NCBI RefSeq assembly: GCF_000025225.2
Contig: NC_013895.2
Location: 930,001 to 994,000, forward strand
DNA from: Mageeibacillus indolicus UPII9-5
GTDB taxonomy: Bacteria > Bacillota > Clostridia > Saccharofermentanales > Fastidiosipilaceae
Direction: 5' to 3'
Length of the DNA stretch: 64,000 nt
The translations under genes were made by a program, and so were the position numbers. The notes beneath the pieces were generated by a model, which did no database searches, had not been told where the DNA came from, and worked only from the letters and a program-made list of their open reading frames with translations. Within the stretch, counting starts at the first letter, position 1. Each line of letters starts with the position of its first letter. Below are positions 28,093 through 35,001 of the stretch, piece after piece.

Positions 28093-28126
28093 AAACGGCA
28101 TAGTCGATGTTATCGCTATGCCGTTT
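28093..28126. terminator. Bidirectional terminator between pepC and the pilus operon
   Basis: An 11-bp stem AAACGGCATAG / CTATGCCGTTT with a second short stem inside lies between the convergent pepC and pilus-operon ends. The plus strand continues into TTTGTGTTT and the minus strand into TTTATTAT. Confidence 0.7.
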
Positions 28127-28183: not shown

Positions 28184-29092
28184 TCAGTCATCTTCTGCAG
28201 GAACTTTCCTGGCCTCGTCGGTTGGCGACGTTTCGCTTTCTGTCGGCGGCGTTTCGCTTTCCGTTGGCGGCGTTTTGCTTTCCGGCGACGCTTCGCTTTC
28301 CGTTGGCGGTGTTTCTGCCACTGACGCCGTTTCTGCTACCGCCCGCCTATCCTTACGCTCGCGCCACCATTTATAAACCAACAAAAACACCAGCAAAACG
28401 ACCAGTAAGCCAATCAGCCAAATGATCCAACTTGAAGTCAAAATTTCCCCTGTTTTGGCAAAACCAGTTTCCAAAAACTTAAACACCTTGCCTAACGGCT
28501 TAGCCGGCGGCGAAGACGGATTAGACTTATCGCAAGGCATGCAGCAGCCTACCCAAATACGGAAATAAGCTGGCGGCGGACCATTATACGTGTGATTATA
28601 GACAACAGAATCATACTTATATCCGTCATCACCCTTGATCTGCCGCGTCTTCCCGATAACTTTCCCCTGATATTCCCAAGCCAAAACCGTTATCTCATAA
28701 GTTCGCTGGTCATAAACATATTCAAGACTATCGCCGGCATTATAAGCATAACTTTCAAGGCTCAAAATATATTCATACTTCCCTTTTTTAGGAAAATCAA
28801 TGCATATTTGTTGGCTTGCCTTGCCGGTTAAAGTAAAACGATAAACACCATCCTTACTACCTTCAGGCAATGGAGCCAAACCGTCCTTCGCTTTAAGCGT
28901 ATAGGTAAAAGATGCCTGCGGCACGCTGAGACCAGATTTAGCTTTTACCGTAAAAGTCTGGCTGACGGACAGTTCTTCATAATTACAAGCCTGTACCTCG
29001 AAACAGAAACCGTTACCCCAGACGAGTGCAAAAACAAGCAACGCAATAAAAATAAACCGATACACTTTTGATTTGTCGTGCAACGACCTCAA
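28184..29092 (-). CDS. Pilus minor/base protein candidate (FctB-like position) with C-terminal membrane helix and TPPTESE tail
   Basis: The 302-residue protein has a signal peptide-like segment (FIFIALLVFALVWGNGFCF), then a beta-rich domain of the Spy0128/FctA pilin type (about residues 45-170). That domain has SFTYTLKAKD, KGKYEYILSLESY and the terminal VVYNHTYN strand that can supply the Asn of an isopeptide bond. Next come a Pro-rich linker, FAKTGE at 211-216, a membrane helix (221-240) and a KWWRERKDRR stop-transfer. FAKTGE sits where an LPKTGE sorting motif would lie. A 52-residue tail with TPPTESE repeats follows the basic segment, which is unusual for a sorted protein. The start is TTG with GGGAG upstream and overlaps the sortase stop (TTGA). 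Role inferred from gene order. Confidence 0.65.
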   Translation of the reverse strand: MRSLHDKSKVYRFIFIALLVFALVWGNGFCFEVQACNYEELSVSQTFTVKAKSGLSVPQASFTYTLKAKDGLAPLPEGSKDGVYRFTLTGKASQQICIDFPKKGKYEYILSLESYAYNAGDSLEYVYDQRTYEITVLAWEYQGKVIGKTRQIKGDDGYKYDSVVYNHTYNGPPPAYFRIWVGCCMPCDKSNPSSPPAKPLGKVFKFLETGFAKTGEILTSSWIIWLIGLLVVLLVFLLVYKWWRERKDRRAVAETASVAETPPTESEASPESKTPPTESETPPTESETSPTDEARKVPAEDD

Positions 29093-30057
29093 TTATTTCT
29101 CCCGTCCTTTCCGCGCCAAAGTTTCCTAAGCACCTTATATATTAAGTATAACAGTACAAGAATCAGCCAAAGAGCCGAAAGCGCATAGAATAAATCGAAA
29201 TCATTAAAATAGGCTAGCAAATTGCTGAGACGTACCGGTTTAACTTTTTCCGCATCAGGATTAACCTGAACTTGATCCTCCAATTTTGCGACTAAAATAT
29301 ATCGACCGTCGGTAATTGTAAAATTACAGGTATCCATAACTACCAGGCGGTCGGCGGCGGTTACACCTATATCTCGCTTGAACTGCGCTTTATCAAAAAT
29401 ATATTTGATAAAAGATTCTTTATCAGCAACAGAGTTATAGGATGTCTGGAAAATTCTCTGATCCGTTCCCACCGTTTGAATAAAGGCGAAGAAGTGCAAG
29501 CCTAAACTTTGCTTATCATTGCGGTGAATGACCCCGTACTCATGGCTGTTAAAAAAATCTGCCTCAGCAAATAAGCCGATGTCGCCGAACATCTTGCGCT
29601 CGACCATGAAATGTCCGTAAATTATGTTGTTGAAATCGCTAAAGTCGGGCTTGTTGCCGGAGTCAAGGAAAATACTGCCGGCGGTTGAATATTCTCCAGT
29701 AACCGTCTCACTCAGATAGCGGTAATTATCTTTTCCCTGTAAAATCGGGTAGTCGATTTTGGTGCCGTAAACATCAATCCAACCAATTACGTCCGGGTTG
29801 ATGCTGCGTAATTTTCGATAGGCGACATCACCGTTTTCGCGCGGCTTATATACGGCATATTCTTCCGCCCCGGCTTGTTCAAGTACCAAATTGCTGTCAT
29901 AAAGAGCATATGCACCTAATATGAGCAGAAGAATCGAGATGGCTAAAACGGCGTAGTCGATAGCAGAGCTAAATCGGTTAATAAGATTGATCAGGCATTT
30001 TTCGCCGCGTCTCAGCGATTGATTATTTTGCGTTTGTTTAGCTGATTTTTTATTCAT
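29089..30057 (-). CDS. Class B-type sortase of the pilus locus
   Basis: Sortases join pilins by transpeptidation outside the membrane. The protein has an N-terminal membrane helix (YAVLAISILLLILGAYALY) and the sortase core: IGWIDVYGTKIDYPILQG, the catalytic His in NNIIYGHFM, the catalytic Cys in LVVMDTCNF (a variant of TLxTC) and the Arg in DGRYILVAKL. A second membrane helix lies near the C-terminus (LFYALSALWLILVLLYLIYKVL). The pattern matches class B enzymes, which also act as pilin polymerases in FCT-type loci. The ATG at 30057 lies after an intergenic hairpin and lacks a clear ribosome-binding site. A GTG at 30105 would place the hairpin inside the coding region. Confidence 0.9.
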   Translation of the reverse strand: MNKKSAKQTQNNQSLRRGEKCLINLINRFSSAIDYAVLAISILLLILGAYALYDSNLVLEQAGAEEYAVYKPRENGDVAYRKLRSINPDVIGWIDVYGTKIDYPILQGKDNYRYLSETVTGEYSTAGSIFLDSGNKPDFSDFNNIIYGHFMVERKMFGDIGLFAEADFFNSHEYGVIHRNDKQSLGLHFFAFIQTVGTDQRIFQTSYNSVADKESFIKYIFDKAQFKRDIGVTAADRLVVMDTCNFTITDGRYILVAKLEDQVQVNPDAEKVKPVRLSNLLAYFNDFDLFYALSALWLILVLLYLIYKVLRKLWRGKDGRNN

Positions 30058-30072
30058 GTTACACGAAACAGC

Positions 30073-30108
30073 CCGGTGATTGCCCGACACTTGCCGGGTA
30101 ACCACCGG
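30073..30108 (-). other. Intercistronic stem-loop between pilin and sortase genes
   Basis: Positions 30073-30086 pair with 30095-30108 (14 positions; on the minus strand one G-U and one A-C mismatch) around an 8-nt loop. No T run follows, so it is not a standard terminator. It lies between the pilin stop and the sortase ATG. It may reduce read-through or protect the pilin mRNA 3' end, giving more pilin than sortase (inference). Confidence 0.65.
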
Positions 30109-30122
30109 TTTGTTAGTTTAGC

Positions 30123-31346
30123 TTAAAAACGGTGTTGTGCTTCATTTTGTTTGCGTTTGCGATTTTTGAGGAAGAAGAAGATCCCGATGACGGCAAGTAA
30201 AGCGATCAAGATGAAGGGCAGGTTGTCAAGGAGGACACCGGTAGCGGTCTGTTCTTTATTCTTATAAAGGACATAGTTACCATCTTTGTCCTCACCCAAG
30301 ATGAATTCCTTGGTTTTGAATGGCGTATTTTCACCAGCCTCAATAGTAATTCCGTTAGCCTTACCCTCAATTCCGGGTGTAGTACCGCCTTGCGCATCGG
30401 TTTCTTCAACGGTAACTTTGGAACCGAGCCAGACATTGGAGAATACACCGCTTTGATCATTTTTTAATTTAAATGTGATATCACCATAAGCATTATCAGT
30501 TGGGTTCCCTGATTCTGGAGTGCAAAAATATTTGATTTTGCTATCATCATCAGCTGCTACCGTATCAGGTTTGGTGATGTGAACTTTAAATTCGAAAATT
30601 TGTGCCTTGAAAAGGTCAGATCCCTCAGCTTTCTTTTCGATCCTCAGGCCTTTTTTCTGCTTGGTTTCATCAGGCGGATTTTGGCCACCCGGCACTATCG
30701 GTTTCACTTTTTTGTTATAAATATTGGTGAACTTTAGGCCATTTTCTTCACCAGTTTTGGGATTAGGATTGTATTCAACCTTGGCTTGTTGCGCCGGCGA
30801 GTCAGTGCCATCATTGGCATCAGCTACTTCACGTTTGATAAAGATTTTAGATACCATTAGTTTAGTATCCTTTTTGACAACGAAGAAAGAAATCAAATAC
30901 TTAGCCGGCGACTTCGTCCATTTTTCCTCGTAATCAGTACTATTGGCTGGAGTGATTGCAGCTTCCTCGATTTCATAGGTGAACTGCCCCGGTTTATTCC
31001 AGTTAATTGCTTCCAAATTAAGACTTGCATCCTTGTTAATAGTCTTACCTGTTCCTAGTGTTTCGTTACCGTCATATGCTACTGTCGGAGCAACAATAGT
31101 AGGTAATTTACCTTTATCATTTTCATTCCCGTTAAAAGAATGTTTAGCAAAATTAAAACTAAAAGTTTTAGCCGGCGTCTTGACCCCAACCGGCAATTTG
31201 AGTTTTTTCAAGATTTTCAGTTCCGTAATCGGCTGAGGATCAGCAGCACTTACCGCCGCGCTACCAGTCCATACAATTCCCGAACTGACCAAAGTCAGCA
31301 AAGCAACCACAGAGGCAGCTACCTTCTTCAAAAACAGTTTTTTCAT
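30123..31346 (-). CDS. Major pilin-like protein with two isopeptide (Spy0128-type) domains
   Basis: The 407-residue secreted protein has a signal peptide (KKVAASVVALLTLVSSGIVW) and two Spy0128/FctA-type beta domains. Domain 1 (about 45-212) has KTFSFNFAK at its start, YEIEE with the catalytic Glu position and FTNIYN at its end. Domain 2 (about 230-365) has FEFKVHITK, VTVEET and VLYKNK. The Lys, Glu and Asn of such motifs form intramolecular isopeptide bonds. The C-terminus has a hydrophobic helix (376-393) and KNRKRK, but the sorting motif is TATGV (367-371) instead of LPXTG or the EVPTG/QVPTG of FCT pilins. AAGGAAGG lies upstream of the ATG. It sits between the SipA-like and sortase genes. 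Confidence 0.85.
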   Translation of the reverse strand: MKKLFLKKVAASVVALLTLVSSGIVWTGSAAVSAADPQPITELKILKKLKLPVGVKTPAKTFSFNFAKHSFNGNENDKGKLPTIVAPTVAYDGNETLGTGKTINKDASLNLEAINWNKPGQFTYEIEEAAITPANSTDYEEKWTKSPAKYLISFFVVKKDTKLMVSKIFIKREVADANDGTDSPAQQAKVEYNPNPKTGEENGLKFTNIYNKKVKPIVPGGQNPPDETKQKKGLRIEKKAEGSDLFKAQIFEFKVHITKPDTVAADDDSKIKYFCTPESGNPTDNAYGDITFKLKNDQSGVFSNVWLGSKVTVEETDAQGGTTPGIEGKANGITIEAGENTPFKTKEFILGEDKDGNYVLYKNKEQTATGVLLDNLPFILIALLAVIGIFFFLKNRKRKQNEAQHRF

Positions 31347-31427
31347 AAACTTACCTTCCTTTTAAATCTAATTTATGTTCAAATAGTATATCAATTAATT
31401 TCGTCGCCTAATCTTGTGGCTACAAAA

Positions 31428-32318
31428 CTAAATACCTCGGTTACGCACGACACTGAACACTCGGCCACTGATTTCATTCTTTTTTATCGGGCCGAAGATG
31501 CGACTGTCCGTTGTTTTATCGCGATTATCACCCAGAATAAAATATTCATCCGGCTTTAAAGTCACCGGGAAAGCGATTCCGGCTTCCAGCGGCCTAGTTT
31601 CCTTGAAAATTTTGGGTTCATATTGCCCAGCATCGTTGACCTTTAGGCCGGCGGAGTCGATATTTACCGTATCGCCTGGTCGAGCCACAATACGTGCGGC
31701 ACGAATTTTGCCTTGATAGCGAAAGGCAATCACCTCACCAACTTTGTACTCGCGCGGCAGGCGATAGAACAAAAGCATATCACCGGGTTCAACATTCGGC
31801 ACCATGCCTAAGTCATTAACGCGACCGATCCCAAAAACAAAGCTAAAAATCGCCGCCAAAACTACCCCAACCGAAACGACTTTAATCAGGCAACGCAGGG
31901 CGGCATCCACGATTGGTCGCTTGTTGAGCCGCGAGAACTCTCCTTGGCCATGATGTGTTTGACGATATTTGCCCAATATATTCCCTGCCATTAACGGCGT
32001 TGCCCTATTCAGGTCAGTCTCTGGAACGAAGGGCTTTACTGCCTGATTTCCGGCATTTACTTCTGCAGCGAACTGTTGTGCCGGTATCACTGACAAAAGT
32101 TGTTCCGGGATATTCGCCGGCCGCCGCACTTGCTCGGCTACAGCAGTAGATGATTGAGGGGCAGCATTCTTATTAGTCCCTGCCAGATAAAGCGGCCGCA
32201 CCCCACCTTCTGCCCTGCCACTTACACCTACACTCATAGCAGAATCCATACCGGATACAGAAGCACGACACTGGATATTCACATCGCTATAATCTAAAAA
32301 TGTAGCTAATTTACGCAC
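31428..32318 (-). CDS. SipA-like signal peptidase I homologue, predicted catalytically inactive
   Basis: The 296-residue protein has a 130-residue Ala/Pro-rich N-terminal region without a clear fold, one membrane helix (about 141-163) and a signal peptidase I domain. Conserved parts are the PGDMLLFYRL strand, RIVARPGDTVNI and box E ILGDNRDKTTDSRIFGPI. The catalytic Ser position in SMxPT is Gly171 (GMVPNVEPGD), and the Lys before the RVxGxPGD strand is Ala208. Both members of the Ser-Lys dyad are therefore missing, as known for streptococcal SipA, which is needed for FCT pilus assembly without being a working peptidase. The start is GTG with GAGGAGGTG upstream. It lies between the large surface protein and the pilin genes. 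Confidence 0.85.
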   Translation of the reverse strand: MRKLATFLDYSDVNIQCRASVSGMDSAMSVGVSGRAEGGVRPLYLAGTNKNAAPQSSTAVAEQVRRPANIPEQLLSVIPAQQFAAEVNAGNQAVKPFVPETDLNRATPLMAGNILGKYRQTHHGQGEFSRLNKRPIVDAALRCLIKVVSVGVVLAAIFSFVFGIGRVNDLGMVPNVEPGDMLLFYRLPREYKVGEVIAFRYQGKIRAARIVARPGDTVNIDSAGLKVNDAGQYEPKIFKETRPLEAGIAFPVTLKPDEYFILGDNRDKTTDSRIFGPIKKNEISGRVFSVVRNRGI

Positions 32319-32351
32319 GGTTCACCTCCTCTTTTATCTGCAAGCACATAT

Positions 32352-34805
32352 CTATAAGCATCTGCGAGAACTGCCGGCGACCGATCTATGTTTGCGTCGA
32401 TACAGAATCAAAGCCCCAGTCAAAGCACTGAAGGAACTAATTCCTTGCCAAACAGCTTTGCCGGATAAATCATTGCCGACCGGAATTATCGCCAGATCCT
32501 TTTGGACAACTATTGTTATCTGGCACTCAGTAAAATTCTTAGTATAATCACCGTCGACCCCTTTAACGTTCGGATCCTTGTTGTACCACTTATCCTCAGA
32601 ACGAAATTTCAGGTTGTATACCTTCTGCGTCTCCCCAGGTTTCCATTCAATCCCTTTCACCTGACCGGTAACCTTGGTTTCGTAACGCGTGCATGCCCTA
32701 TAACCATCTCCCGGTTTGAAGCTATCATTCTTGGTAACATTCTCAATTTTAAGCCCGTTAGGAAGTTTACCTTTGAAAAATTTGCCGTCTGCGGAATCAC
32801 CTTCGGAATAACCTTCGTAAGTGAGGGCATTGAAATTCGGCTTGCCATAGCTGTCATTGTCAAACTGGTTTTCCTTGTCATAAGCAAAAATTACGGGCGC
32901 ACGACGTGGATCTATCGGCTGAGAATTCTGCGCCTTACCGTATGGCGGATCAGTAATTTTGCGCTCTTCCTTTAGGGTTAATACCGGTCGGTGATCTGGG
33001 CCAAGACTGCAATCCTTTTCGCAGCAGTTCATTATTGGTTTTTTATGGTCTTCTTCGGTATATGCTGGGTCATTATTATGCAAAAAGCGAAAAGTATAGT
33101 CGGGAAATTTCACCCCTACATCACCATTTTCCCGCACATGCATATAGTTTTTTTGCTGCTTTTCAGGAATTTTCGGATCACGGTCGTGACTATGGGCGTC
33201 AGTAAGTTCCGACAAAATAACTTTATCGTTATACTTTGGATCAGACTTGTAATATTTAATAGTACTTTCAAAGACCTTGTCCTTGACTTCTTTGCGCTCC
33301 GCTTGCGTCAATTTATGTTTGTTACGAACATAAATTGTCTCTGGACGTTTTAAAAAATGCCTTCCGCGCATACCAAATGGTCCATGCCATATTGAGCGCT
33401 GATACTTTCCGGCACGATTACTAAAGGTCACGCCTATGGGGGTATCCGACGGATCGATCCCATTATAACTGTCAATAGGGAAAGTTACTTCCCAAGTAAA
33501 GAATGTGTCTTGTTTTACTGGCCGTGTCACTCTCCAAGCTGTTTTAAAAATTCCATTGTTTAAATATCCACTCACAGTTTCCGCAGCTGTTTTTACACCA
33601 GGATCAAGTATGCCATTTTTTCTCAAAGTATCAGTATTAGTATAAAAGGACTCTTCTCTATAAAAATCGGTACTTTTATCCATCTCTTTATACTCTTTAC
33701 CGGTTGAATCTGTTTTTGTAACAGTTTTATTTTCTAAAATGCCATAGCACCCATGAATATTACTACACCCATGCTCATTTTCAGCATCAATAGCTGTTAC
33801 TTCTTTTTGAAAATTTAATTTTCCGTTGTTTTTATCATATTCTCTTTCAATAATTTTGACGTGATTTGCTTCATTTTTGGAAAGAGGCAAACACAGATTC
33901 ACCACTCCATTTTTCCATCCAAAGCCTCCTCCTATCCACGGTCCACCGTCTTTATTAAACGTTATTAAAAAAGTTATCGATTTCTTATCATATTTTTTTC
34001 GTTCCACAGTAAAGTTCTTTATAGTAGCATCTAAGCCTTCACCTGTGTTGTCATTAGAAATGTAAAAATAACGATCCATTGCATCAAACTTGTCATCTTC
34101 TTCAGCATTTTTAGGATATCCTTCTATAGGAGGATTAGGATCTAAGTACCACAAACCTTCCCTTGTAGCAAAATCTCCGCCTTTGTTTTTTCCGGCCACC
34201 GCCTGATACAATTCATTAATCCGCCTAGTCGCCTTTTGCAAAATGCCGTGATATTTCCTAAGTACCTCAACCGAAAGCTTATCCTTATTCGCGGAATAAT
34301 CAGCTTCAATTTTCGCCAATGCTGCCTTGGTCTCGGTAAGCGTGTCAACTAATTCCTTCAGCTGCTTTTCCTTGCCCAACAAATTCAAAACGATAATCGG
34401 ATCATCTTTCTTACCAGTTGAGCCGGGAATCCGATCCAATTTTTTCTTATGCAGAAAATCAAACGTCTTGTGCAAACTAGATATATACTCTTCTATTTCG
34501 TACATCAGCTGTCTTTTTTCTTGCAATTCAGCCTCGGTTGCCGCCGTAGCTTCCTCAGTCCGCGCGTCGCCGCCGGCTTTCTCCATTGAACCATCATTTT
34601 TCCGTGTCAAATCATCATCATTAGCATTATTAACGTAATTGGCAGATTCACCAGATTTAAGCGTATCAGCATGCTTATTCACACCAGAATTCGGACGATG
34701 CTCTTCCATTTCCTGTACCGCATAAACGATAGGACAAAATGAACCAGCTGATAAGGCAAGGCATAGAGATATGAGCACAATCAAAGCTTTTTCAGTCCGC
34801 AACAT
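32352..34805 (-). CDS. Large secreted pilus-locus surface protein (adhesin/tip candidate)
   Basis: The 817-residue protein heads the pilus operon and has no family I recognise. It begins with a signal peptide (ALIVLISLCLALSAGSFCPIVYA), then a charged region with a predicted coiled-coil (about residues 85-205). A long beta-rich region follows with many aromatic and charged residues and a Cys-rich patch (NCCEKDCS). The C-terminus has IPVGN, a weakly hydrophobic stretch (VWQGISSFSALTGALILY) and RRKHR, resembling a degenerate wall-sorting signal. In FCT loci this position belongs to the Cpa-type ancillary adhesin. GAGGG lies about 12 nt before the ATG, farther than usual. SipA-like follows after 33 nt. 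Confidence 0.7.
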   Translation of the reverse strand: MLRTEKALIVLISLCLALSAGSFCPIVYAVQEMEEHRPNSGVNKHADTLKSGESANYVNNANDDDLTRKNDGSMEKAGGDARTEEATAATEAELQEKRQLMYEIEEYISSLHKTFDFLHKKKLDRIPGSTGKKDDPIIVLNLLGKEKQLKELVDTLTETKAALAKIEADYSANKDKLSVEVLRKYHGILQKATRRINELYQAVAGKNKGGDFATREGLWYLDPNPPIEGYPKNAEEDDKFDAMDRYFYISNDNTGEGLDATIKNFTVERKKYDKKSITFLITFNKDGGPWIGGGFGWKNGVVNLCLPLSKNEANHVKIIEREYDKNNGKLNFQKEVTAIDAENEHGCSNIHGCYGILENKTVTKTDSTGKEYKEMDKSTDFYREESFYTNTDTLRKNGILDPGVKTAAETVSGYLNNGIFKTAWRVTRPVKQDTFFTWEVTFPIDSYNGIDPSDTPIGVTFSNRAGKYQRSIWHGPFGMRGRHFLKRPETIYVRNKHKLTQAERKEVKDKVFESTIKYYKSDPKYNDKVILSELTDAHSHDRDPKIPEKQQKNYMHVRENGDVGVKFPDYTFRFLHNNDPAYTEEDHKKPIMNCCEKDCSLGPDHRPVLTLKEERKITDPPYGKAQNSQPIDPRRAPVIFAYDKENQFDNDSYGKPNFNALTYEGYSEGDSADGKFFKGKLPNGLKIENVTKNDSFKPGDGYRACTRYETKVTGQVKGIEWKPGETQKVYNLKFRSEDKWYNKDPNVKGVDGDYTKNFTECQITIVVQKDLAIIPVGNDLSGKAVWQGISSFSALTGALILYRRKHRSVAGSSRRCL

Positions 34806-35001
34806 AAAATGAACGTCCCTCTTAAAGGCAAAATAAAATTCTTTTGTTTCTAAGTTAGACCTATTTTACAATATAATTATGTTTAAGACTATAGGAATAT
34901 GTATTATTTTATATTTTTTAACAGCATTGTAATTGTTCTGTTATTTTGCGCAATCAAACAATTTCTATTTCGAACATTTGTAAAATAAGAAAACAAAAAA
35001 G
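34806..35001 (-). other. AT-rich region upstream of the pilus operon
   Basis: No gene is visible. On the minus strand it is very AT-rich and holds TTGTAAAAT (near 34870) as a possible -10 for the pilus operon, but no convincing -35. Long A/T runs (34890-34925, 34980-35010) could give curved DNA. Confidence 0.4.

What the first reader, a model, noticed from the sequence alone, without database searches (positions are those of the whole stretch)
28184..34805. FCT-type pilus locus with streptococcal gene order but no LPXTG
The order large surface protein, SipA-like, isopeptide pilin, class B sortase, small anchored protein matches cpa-sipA-fctA-srt-fctB of the Streptococcus pyogenes FCT region. 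Here it occurs in what looks like a clostridial genome, and none of the three surface proteins has a recognisable LPXTG. Either the sortase uses a new motif or anchoring works another way.
Basis: partly seen in the sequence, partly recalled or inferred. Interest (0 to 1): 0.75.

Follow-up and report, generated by a model that had tools for sequence, protein, structure and literature searches.

The report
Covalent pilus with unusual sorting signals
A bacterium that is probably a vaginal anaerobe carries a five-gene kit for building covalently linked hair-like pili of the kind known from strep throat bacteria; the kit belongs to a known and widespread family, but in its branch the cut-and-link tag on the tip protein carries valine where sortase tags nearly always carry threonine.

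Summary
On the minus strand at 34805-28184 lie five intact genes: large surface protein, SipA-like protein, pilin, class B sortase, small anchored protein. No surface protein has LPXTG. Profile and fold searches confirm four homologies: pilin to the FctA/PitB pilins, SipA-like to SipA (catalytic Ser and Lys both lost), sortase to Spy0129, small protein to FctB. The large protein has no detectable relation to Cpa; it matches only by position and C-terminal sorting signal.

The lack of LPXTG is not a paradox. Streptococcal class B sortase pili use xVPTG-type signals too, and a clostridial pilus with this gene set is published (C. perfringens VR-10B). I found such loci in dozens of Firmicutes. 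The small protein's FAKTGE resembles the [LIV]PKTGE anchors elsewhere in this genome, which suggests a separate anchoring sortase.

What is new is the variant. The window sits in a well-supported ten-member sub-clade (Carnobacteriaceae, Tissierellales, Peptostreptococcus, Mogibacterium, Streptococcus). There the tip signal is [IV]PVG in six of ten members, with Val at the scissile P1 position; the sister member has PLG. The sortase also has a C-terminal membrane helix that Spy0129 lacks. Verdict: a real class B sortase pilus locus, a new variant of a known kind.

The parts
32352..34805 (-). Large surface protein (817 aa), probable tip subunit: signal peptide, N-terminal helical/coiled region, beta-rich part with an atypical Rib-like stretch, C-terminal sorting signal
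   Evidence: aRib E 4.7e-6, just under the curated cut-off; no Pfam thioester or Cna domain; no PDB relative by sequence; AF2 model unreliable, pLDDT 44; position and sorting signal as in relatives
32475..32489 (-). Tip sorting motif IIPVG, followed by NDLSG (pattern PVGxxxxG), then hydrophobic stretch and basic tail
   Evidence: Sequence; same PVG signal in L074, L075, L077, L078, L189
31428..32318 (-). SipA-like pseudo signal peptidase (296 aa)
   Evidence: Peptidase_S26 E 3e-21; profile of the sub-clade hits SipA 4n31 at 1e-28 against 5e-9 for the best active SPase
31806..31808 (-). Gly171 codon in place of the SPase I catalytic Ser
   Evidence: Alignment
31695..31697 (-). Ala208 codon in place of the SPase I catalytic Lys
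   Evidence: Alignment
31929..32318 (-). Cytoplasmic N-terminal extension of about 130 residues of the SipA-like protein, absent from sub-clade relatives
   Evidence: start supported by an AGGAGGTG-type ribosome site just upstream
30123..31346 (-). Major pilin (407 aa), two CnaB-type domains; predicted isopeptide triads K47-E128-N208 and K238-E315-N363; candidate acceptor lysine K189
   Evidence: DUF7601 E 2e-10; profile hits FctA/PitB pilins at 2e-36 to 5e-33; conserved residues
30234..30251 (-). Pilin sorting motif QTATGV
   Evidence: Sequence; aligns with QQT[PA][TV]G in the sub-clade and x[IV]PTG[IV] elsewhere
29089..30105 (-). Class B sortase (338 aa), His165-Cys260-Arg268 triad intact
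   Evidence: TIGR03064 184 bits against cut-off 154; Spy0129 3psq E 4e-57; triad invariant
29134..29199 (-). C-terminal membrane helix of the sortase
   Evidence: Hydropathy of the tail; conserved in the sub-clade; absent from Spy0129 (PMC3019223)
28184..29092 (-). Small anchored protein (302 aa), FctB-like base subunit: Ig-like domain 40-170, membrane helix, acidic Pro/Thr/Ser-rich cytoplasmic tail
   Evidence: FctB3 8k6t E 1e-6, FctB 3klq E 1e-5; AF2 domain pLDDT about 90; FctB is the best Foldseek match
28445..28462 (-). Base sorting motif FAKTGE
   Evidence: Sequence; resembles LPKTGE/IPKTGE anchors elsewhere in the genome
35010..35038 (-). Intrinsic terminator of the upstream DUF1846 gene, separating it from the pilus operon
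   Evidence: 13-pair stem
28094..28125 (-). Inverted repeat AACGGCATAG-12 nt-CTATGCCGTT followed by a T-rich tract, probable terminator of the operon
   Evidence: Read from the sequence; loop too long for the scan

Best explanation
This is a complete operon for a sortase-assembled covalent pilus of the class B sortase/SipA kind (as in S. pyogenes FCT-2/3/4, pneumococcal PI-2 and C. perfringens VR-10B). The class B sortase cleaves the non-LPXTG signals of the pilin (QTAT|GV) and of the tip protein (IIPV|GN). It joins the freed C-terminus to a lysine of the next pilin (candidate K189). The catalytically dead SipA homologue acts as an assembly factor, not as a protease. The FctB-like base ends the polymer, and its different signal FAKT|GE is used by another sortase of the cell to attach the fibre to peptidoglycan. 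Shown here: homologies, intact sortase triad, loss of the SPase dyad, isopeptide-type residues, distinct signals, conserved operon. Inferred: polymerisation, the tip role of the large protein, cleavage at Val, the acceptor lysine, anchoring by a second sortase.
For: Sortase. Pilin. SipA-like: (60 of 61 SPase-like ORFs in these loci lack the catalytic Lys; the exception is a second, active-type gene in L195). Base. Operon conserved in Atopobacter, Peptostreptococcus, Mogibacterium and Tissierellales. Two classes of signal: pilin/tip TG[IVL] and base KTG[DE] across the surveyed loci. No rival pilus locus in the genome; two further sortases (one class B, one of unclear class) and LPKTGE/IPKTGE proteins present. 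Published mechanism: PMC7900414, PMC4049620, PMC3019223; clostridial precedent PMC8088525.
Against: No expression or biochemical data. The large protein has no Cpa homology and no reliable model, so its tip role rests on gene position and sorting signal. Val at P1 lies outside the published class B preference [S/T] (PMC11987632). Which sortase anchors the base is not determined.
Confidence: 0.88

Rival explanations
1. The class B sortase does not polymerise but attaches three monomeric surface proteins to the wall, like Isd-type SrtB.
For: Most characterised class B sortases are wall anchorers (general knowledge); the fold is shared.
Against: The pilin has the two-domain isopeptide architecture of FctA/PitB; a SipA homologue, essential for polymerisation in S. 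pyogenes (PMC4049620), is in the operon; signals are TG[IV]-type and unlike Isd-type NPxTG signals; Spy0129 is the closest characterised enzyme.
Confidence: 0.07
2. The tip protein is not a sortase substrate: with Val at P1 it stays membrane-bound by its C-terminal helix, and the pilus has no tip subunit from this gene.
For: Val at P1 is outside the published class B preference (PMC11987632); no canonical signal in the last 60 residues of L075, L077, L189 and L192.
Against: The PVG signal sits at the same place in six members, 33-50 residues from the end, although the tip proteins are otherwise very divergent; the KA00581 pilin itself carries AVG and the L192 pilin PIG, and pilins must be cleaved for a pilus to form; class A sortases accept P1 Leu in vitro (PMC10763551).
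Confidence: 0.25
3. Anchoring of all three proteins is done by a sortase encoded elsewhere, and the local sortase has another role.
For: Two more sortases exist in the genome.
Against: The local sortase is in the operon and co-conserved with the pilin across genera; pilin and tip motifs differ from those of the other anchored proteins in the genome.
Confidence: 0.04

Closest known systems
S. pyogenes FCT-2/FCT-3/FCT-4 pilus (cpa-sipA-fctA-srtC-fctB)
   Same: Gene order, class B sortase, dead SipA, FctA-type pilin, FctB-type base, non-LPXTG signals
   Different: Tip not homologous to Cpa by sequence; no RofA/Nra/MsmR-type regulator or fibronectin-binding gene beside it; P1 Val in the tip; sortase with C-terminal membrane helix; SipA with 130-residue extension
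S. pneumoniae / mitis-group PI-2 pilus (pitA-sipA-pitB-srtG1-srtG2)
   Same: SipA homologue, PitB is among the closest solved relatives of the pilin, VTPTG-type pilin signal
   Different: PI-2 lists two sortases and no FctB-like base; pilin signal here is QTATG
Clostridium perfringens VR-10B pilus (cnaA, fimA, fimB, signal peptidase, class B sortase)
   Same: Clostridial pilus with three pilins, a signal-peptidase-like protein and a class B sortase, proven by immunoblot and electron microscopy (PMC8088525)
   Different: Not sequence-compared here; CnaA tip has a collagen-binding domain; VR-10B carries a two-component system
Class B pilus loci of the window's own order (L034-L037) and of Lachnospiraceae
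   Same: SipA-like, pilin and SrtB, often a base and a big protein
   Different: Signals mostly x[IV]PTG[IV]; sortases in another part of the tree, three of the four same-order rows without a C-terminal helix

Membership tests
Class B sortase pilus (FCT-2/3/4 / PI-2 kind) | Pilus-linked class B sortase with intact His-Cys-Arg | tested here: met
   TIGR03064 above cut-off; Spy0129 E 4e-57; H165, C260, R268 invariant
Class B sortase pilus (FCT-2/3/4 / PI-2 kind) | SipA homologue without the SPase Ser-Lys dyad | tested here: met
   SipA 4n31 E 1e-28; Ser to Gly171, Lys to Ala208
Class B sortase pilus (FCT-2/3/4 / PI-2 kind) | FctA-type pilin with two intramolecular isopeptide domains and no YPKN motif | tested here: met
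   PDB pilins E 2e-36 to 5e-33; Lys/Glu/Asn sets invariant or nearly so; no YPKN in the sequence
Class B sortase pilus (FCT-2/3/4 / PI-2 kind) | FctB-type base with a signal different from the pilin's | tested here: met
   FctB profile and fold matches; FAKTGE against QTATGV
Class B sortase pilus (FCT-2/3/4 / PI-2 kind) | Cpa-type tip with thioester and Cna domains (a feature of the FCT tip, not of PI-2) | tested here: not met
   No Pfam thioester or Cna domain, no PDB sequence relative; fold not testable (model pLDDT 44)
Class B sortase pilus (FCT-2/3/4 / PI-2 kind) | Sortase-dependent covalent polymer on the cell | not testable with these tools
   Needs blots, microscopy or mass spectrometry
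S. pyogenes FCT region in the strict sense | RofA/Nra-type regulators and fibronectin-binding genes around the pilus operon (general knowledge) | tested here: not met
   Neighbours are a DUF1846 protein and a polysaccharide deacetylase on one side, and by reading a C1-type peptidase and a peptidyl-prolyl isomerase on the other
NCBIfam TIGR03065, QVPTGV class sortase B sorting domain | Score over the curated cut-off | tested here: not met
   No hit for the window pilin or tip; relatives' pilins below cut-off (L189 20.0 against 21.35, L075 14.8)

The most novel reading that the evidence does not exclude
A sub-clade of class B pilus sortases, found across several families of Firmicutes and distinguished from Spy0129 by a C-terminal membrane helix, naturally uses a tip sorting signal [IV]PVGxxxxG. 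It forms its acyl-enzyme and the tip-to-shaft isopeptide bond on Val instead of Thr. The P1 position of natural sortase signals is therefore not restricted to Thr/Ser, and current motif models miss such pili.
Probability: 0.55. Interest if true: 0.55.

Novelty: new variant of a known kind. Interest (0 to 1): 0.42.

Why it matters
It places a complete covalent pilus operon in an anaerobe that is probably a bacterial-vaginosis-associated species, where no pilus paper turned up in the library searched. It shows that the SipA plus class B sortase route to pili, often treated as a peculiarity of S. pyogenes, is common among Firmicutes. It also offers a naturally occurring test of sortase specificity: a conserved valine at the scissile position, with substrate and enzyme encoded side by side. 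Motif searches built on LPXTG or QVPTGV overlook these loci.

Tried and rejected
AlphaFold model of the large protein: pLDDT 44, discarded, no fold search. Cpa homology of the large protein by PDB sequence search: none. Annotated plasmid records: only class B sortases with 31-35% identity over part of the protein among the rows listed, no sign that the locus is plasmid-borne. Rfam: nothing at 27-39 kb. Promoter scan: no more sites than shuffles. The idea that BsaA-type clostridial filaments are the analogue: rejected, BsaA polymerises without the neighbouring srtB and has no LPXTG-like signal (PMC7395162). Alternative cleavage in the window tip at the downstream NDLSG: the second Gly is shared by relatives but the residue before it is S, T, G, Y or R, so it is unlikely to be the scissile site. 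A laid-out whole genome was not available, so the genome was searched by family and protein. Searches for the exact genome size in papers failed.

Full report
Observation. The window is G000:C1:930001-994000 of a complete 1,809,746-base genome. One same-order relative (G028) carries the locus that the genome collection titles Saccharofermentans sp. (L034 and L126 are the same locus by coordinates and motifs). On the minus strand lie five consecutive intact ORFs: 817, 296, 407, 338 and 302 aa. A 13-pair terminator at 35038-35010 separates them from the DUF1846 gene upstream, and an inverted repeat at 28125-28094 followed by T-rich sequence ends the operon (read). The sortase and small-protein genes overlap by four bases.

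Sortase. It passes the curated class B cut-off. A profile of its sub-clade matches the S. pyogenes pilus polymerase Spy0129 (3psq) at 4e-57; the best match is 4y4q, a SrtB-family sortase (1.5e-72). The His-Cys-Arg triad is invariant. Unlike Spy0129, which has only an N-terminal anchor (PMC3019223), it has a C-terminal hydrophobic helix. So do all its sub-clade members and most of its wider 30-row group, while most of the other large group lack it.

SipA-like protein. The profile matches SipA 4n31 at 1e-28, far better than active signal peptidases (5e-9). The catalytic Ser and Lys are Gly171 and Ala208. Of 61 SPase-like ORFs from such loci, 60 lack the Lys, and the exception is a second, active-type gene in L195. 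In S. pyogenes SipA is essential for polymerisation although the residues at the dyad position (Asp, Gly) play no part in activity (PMC4049620). The window protein has about 130 extra N-terminal residues, seen in none of its sub-clade relatives.

Pilin. The sub-clade profile matches FctA/PitB pilins (7w7i, 4s3l, 7f7y) at 2e-36 to 5e-33. K47, E128, N208 and K238, E315, N363 are invariant in the five-row alignment; over ten rows N208, K238, E315 and N363 stay invariant and K47 and E128 hold in at least eight. The Lys-Asn order matches Spy0128 K36-N168 and K179-N303 (PMC7900414). There is no YPKN motif. K189, invariant and 19 residues before N208, is a candidate acceptor (Spy0128 K161 lies 7 before N168).

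Small protein. The profile matches FctB3 and FctB (1e-6, 1e-5). The AlphaFold model of residues 40-170 is confident. FctB is the first Foldseek match, and class B pilus pilins and FctB fill the top of the structural alignment (Z 12-13).

Large protein. Apart from a sub-threshold atypical Rib stretch (Rib or aRib stretches also in relatives) no domain was found, and no relative in the PDB by sequence. Its model was unusable. The GC content falls to 37-38% at 33-35 kb against about 44% around, which suggests a mosaic, exchangeable adhesin. It is the probable tip by position and signal only.

Is the lack of LPXTG strange? No. FCT-2/3 pilins and Cpa carry QVPTG, VPPTG, EVPTG or VVPTG, and FCT-3 FctB has LPLAGE (PMC7900414); PI-2 has VTPTG (PMC3178606). 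A clostridial pilus with a class B sortase and a signal-peptidase-like protein is proven in C. perfringens (PMC8088525). The genome scan gave 80 loci, many with SipA-like, pilin and SrtB together. Across them pilin and tip signals mostly end TG[IVL], while base signals are mostly KTG[DE]-like. In the window's genome other anchored proteins carry LPKTGE, IPKTGE, VPKTGE, close to FAKTGE of the base, and two orphan sortases are present. The likeliest reading is that the local sortase builds the fibre and another sortase anchors its base.

What is unusual. The sortase tree puts the window with Atopobacter, Peptostreptococcus, Mogibacterium, Tissierellales and Streptococcus (10 rows, 99/94), away from the pilus sortases of its own order. 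Forcing it together with those is rejected (p-AU 2e-77; those rows are not one clade themselves, so this is a coarse test). Horizontal transfer is likely. In these ten the tip signal is PVG in the window, L074, L075, L077, L078 and L189, and PTG or FTG in L076, L188, L190 and L191; the sister L192 has PLG. The pilin signal is QQT[PA]TG or TQT[PA]TG in most, AVG in L077, ITG in L190 and PIG in L192. A separate lineage (L146) has DVG in both pilin and big protein. Because the KA00581 (L077), L192 and L146 pilins themselves lack Thr, and a pilin must be cleaved for a pilus to form, cleavage after Val or Ile is plausible. Published class B preference at P1 is S or T (PMC11987632); class A enzymes accept Leu in vitro (PMC10763551). 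I found no report of natural P1 Val signals in the library searched, but the library is not complete.

Limits. Counts of signals over related sequences are not independent; parsimony gives five changes of tip P1 over the rows scored, with motifs partly assigned by eye. No expression, blot or biochemistry is available. The role of the large protein and the anchoring sortase are inferences.

Noticed in passing
32352-34805 and 28184-29092: Both exported proteins are rich in cysteine clusters (tip: GCSNIHGC, NCCEKDC; base: GCCMPC), unusual for exported pilus proteins; the base cluster is absent from the aligned relatives.
   Followed up: no
28187-28360: The base protein has about 58 residues after its membrane helix, made of TPPTESE-like repeats, which should lie in the cytoplasm; relatives have short tails.
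   Followed up: partly
33000-34999: GC content of the large-protein gene drops to 37-38% against about 44% around it, as if its middle was exchanged.
   Followed up: partly
L032:10352-11281: Orphan sortase of unclear class (best but below cut-off to class C, then E and D models) beside ABC transporter genes in the same genome; candidate housekeeping sortase for the [LIV]PKTGE proteins.
   Followed up: partly
L033:8216-9001: Second, orphan class B sortase in the same genome (TIGR03064 below cut-off); no substrate gene beside it.
   Followed up: partly
L078:5367-9042: The related pilus locus of Streptococcus sp. X13SY08 is broken into several frames (large protein split, pilin cut short, no SipA-like ORF detected), so it is probably decaying.
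   Followed up: partly
L136:583-1914, L150:7983-9710, L127:2521-3663: Some class B pilus sortases carry long C-terminal regions (about 120-330 residues) with hydrophobic segments, of unknown role.
   Followed up: no
L195:9399-13497: One locus holds a dead SipA-like gene and, a few kb away, a second SPase-like gene with an intact Ser-Lys pair, a natural contrast for SipA function.
   Followed up: no
L118:6160-7455: Pilin whose signal reads SPTDI, with Asp where the P1' Gly should be.
   Followed up: no
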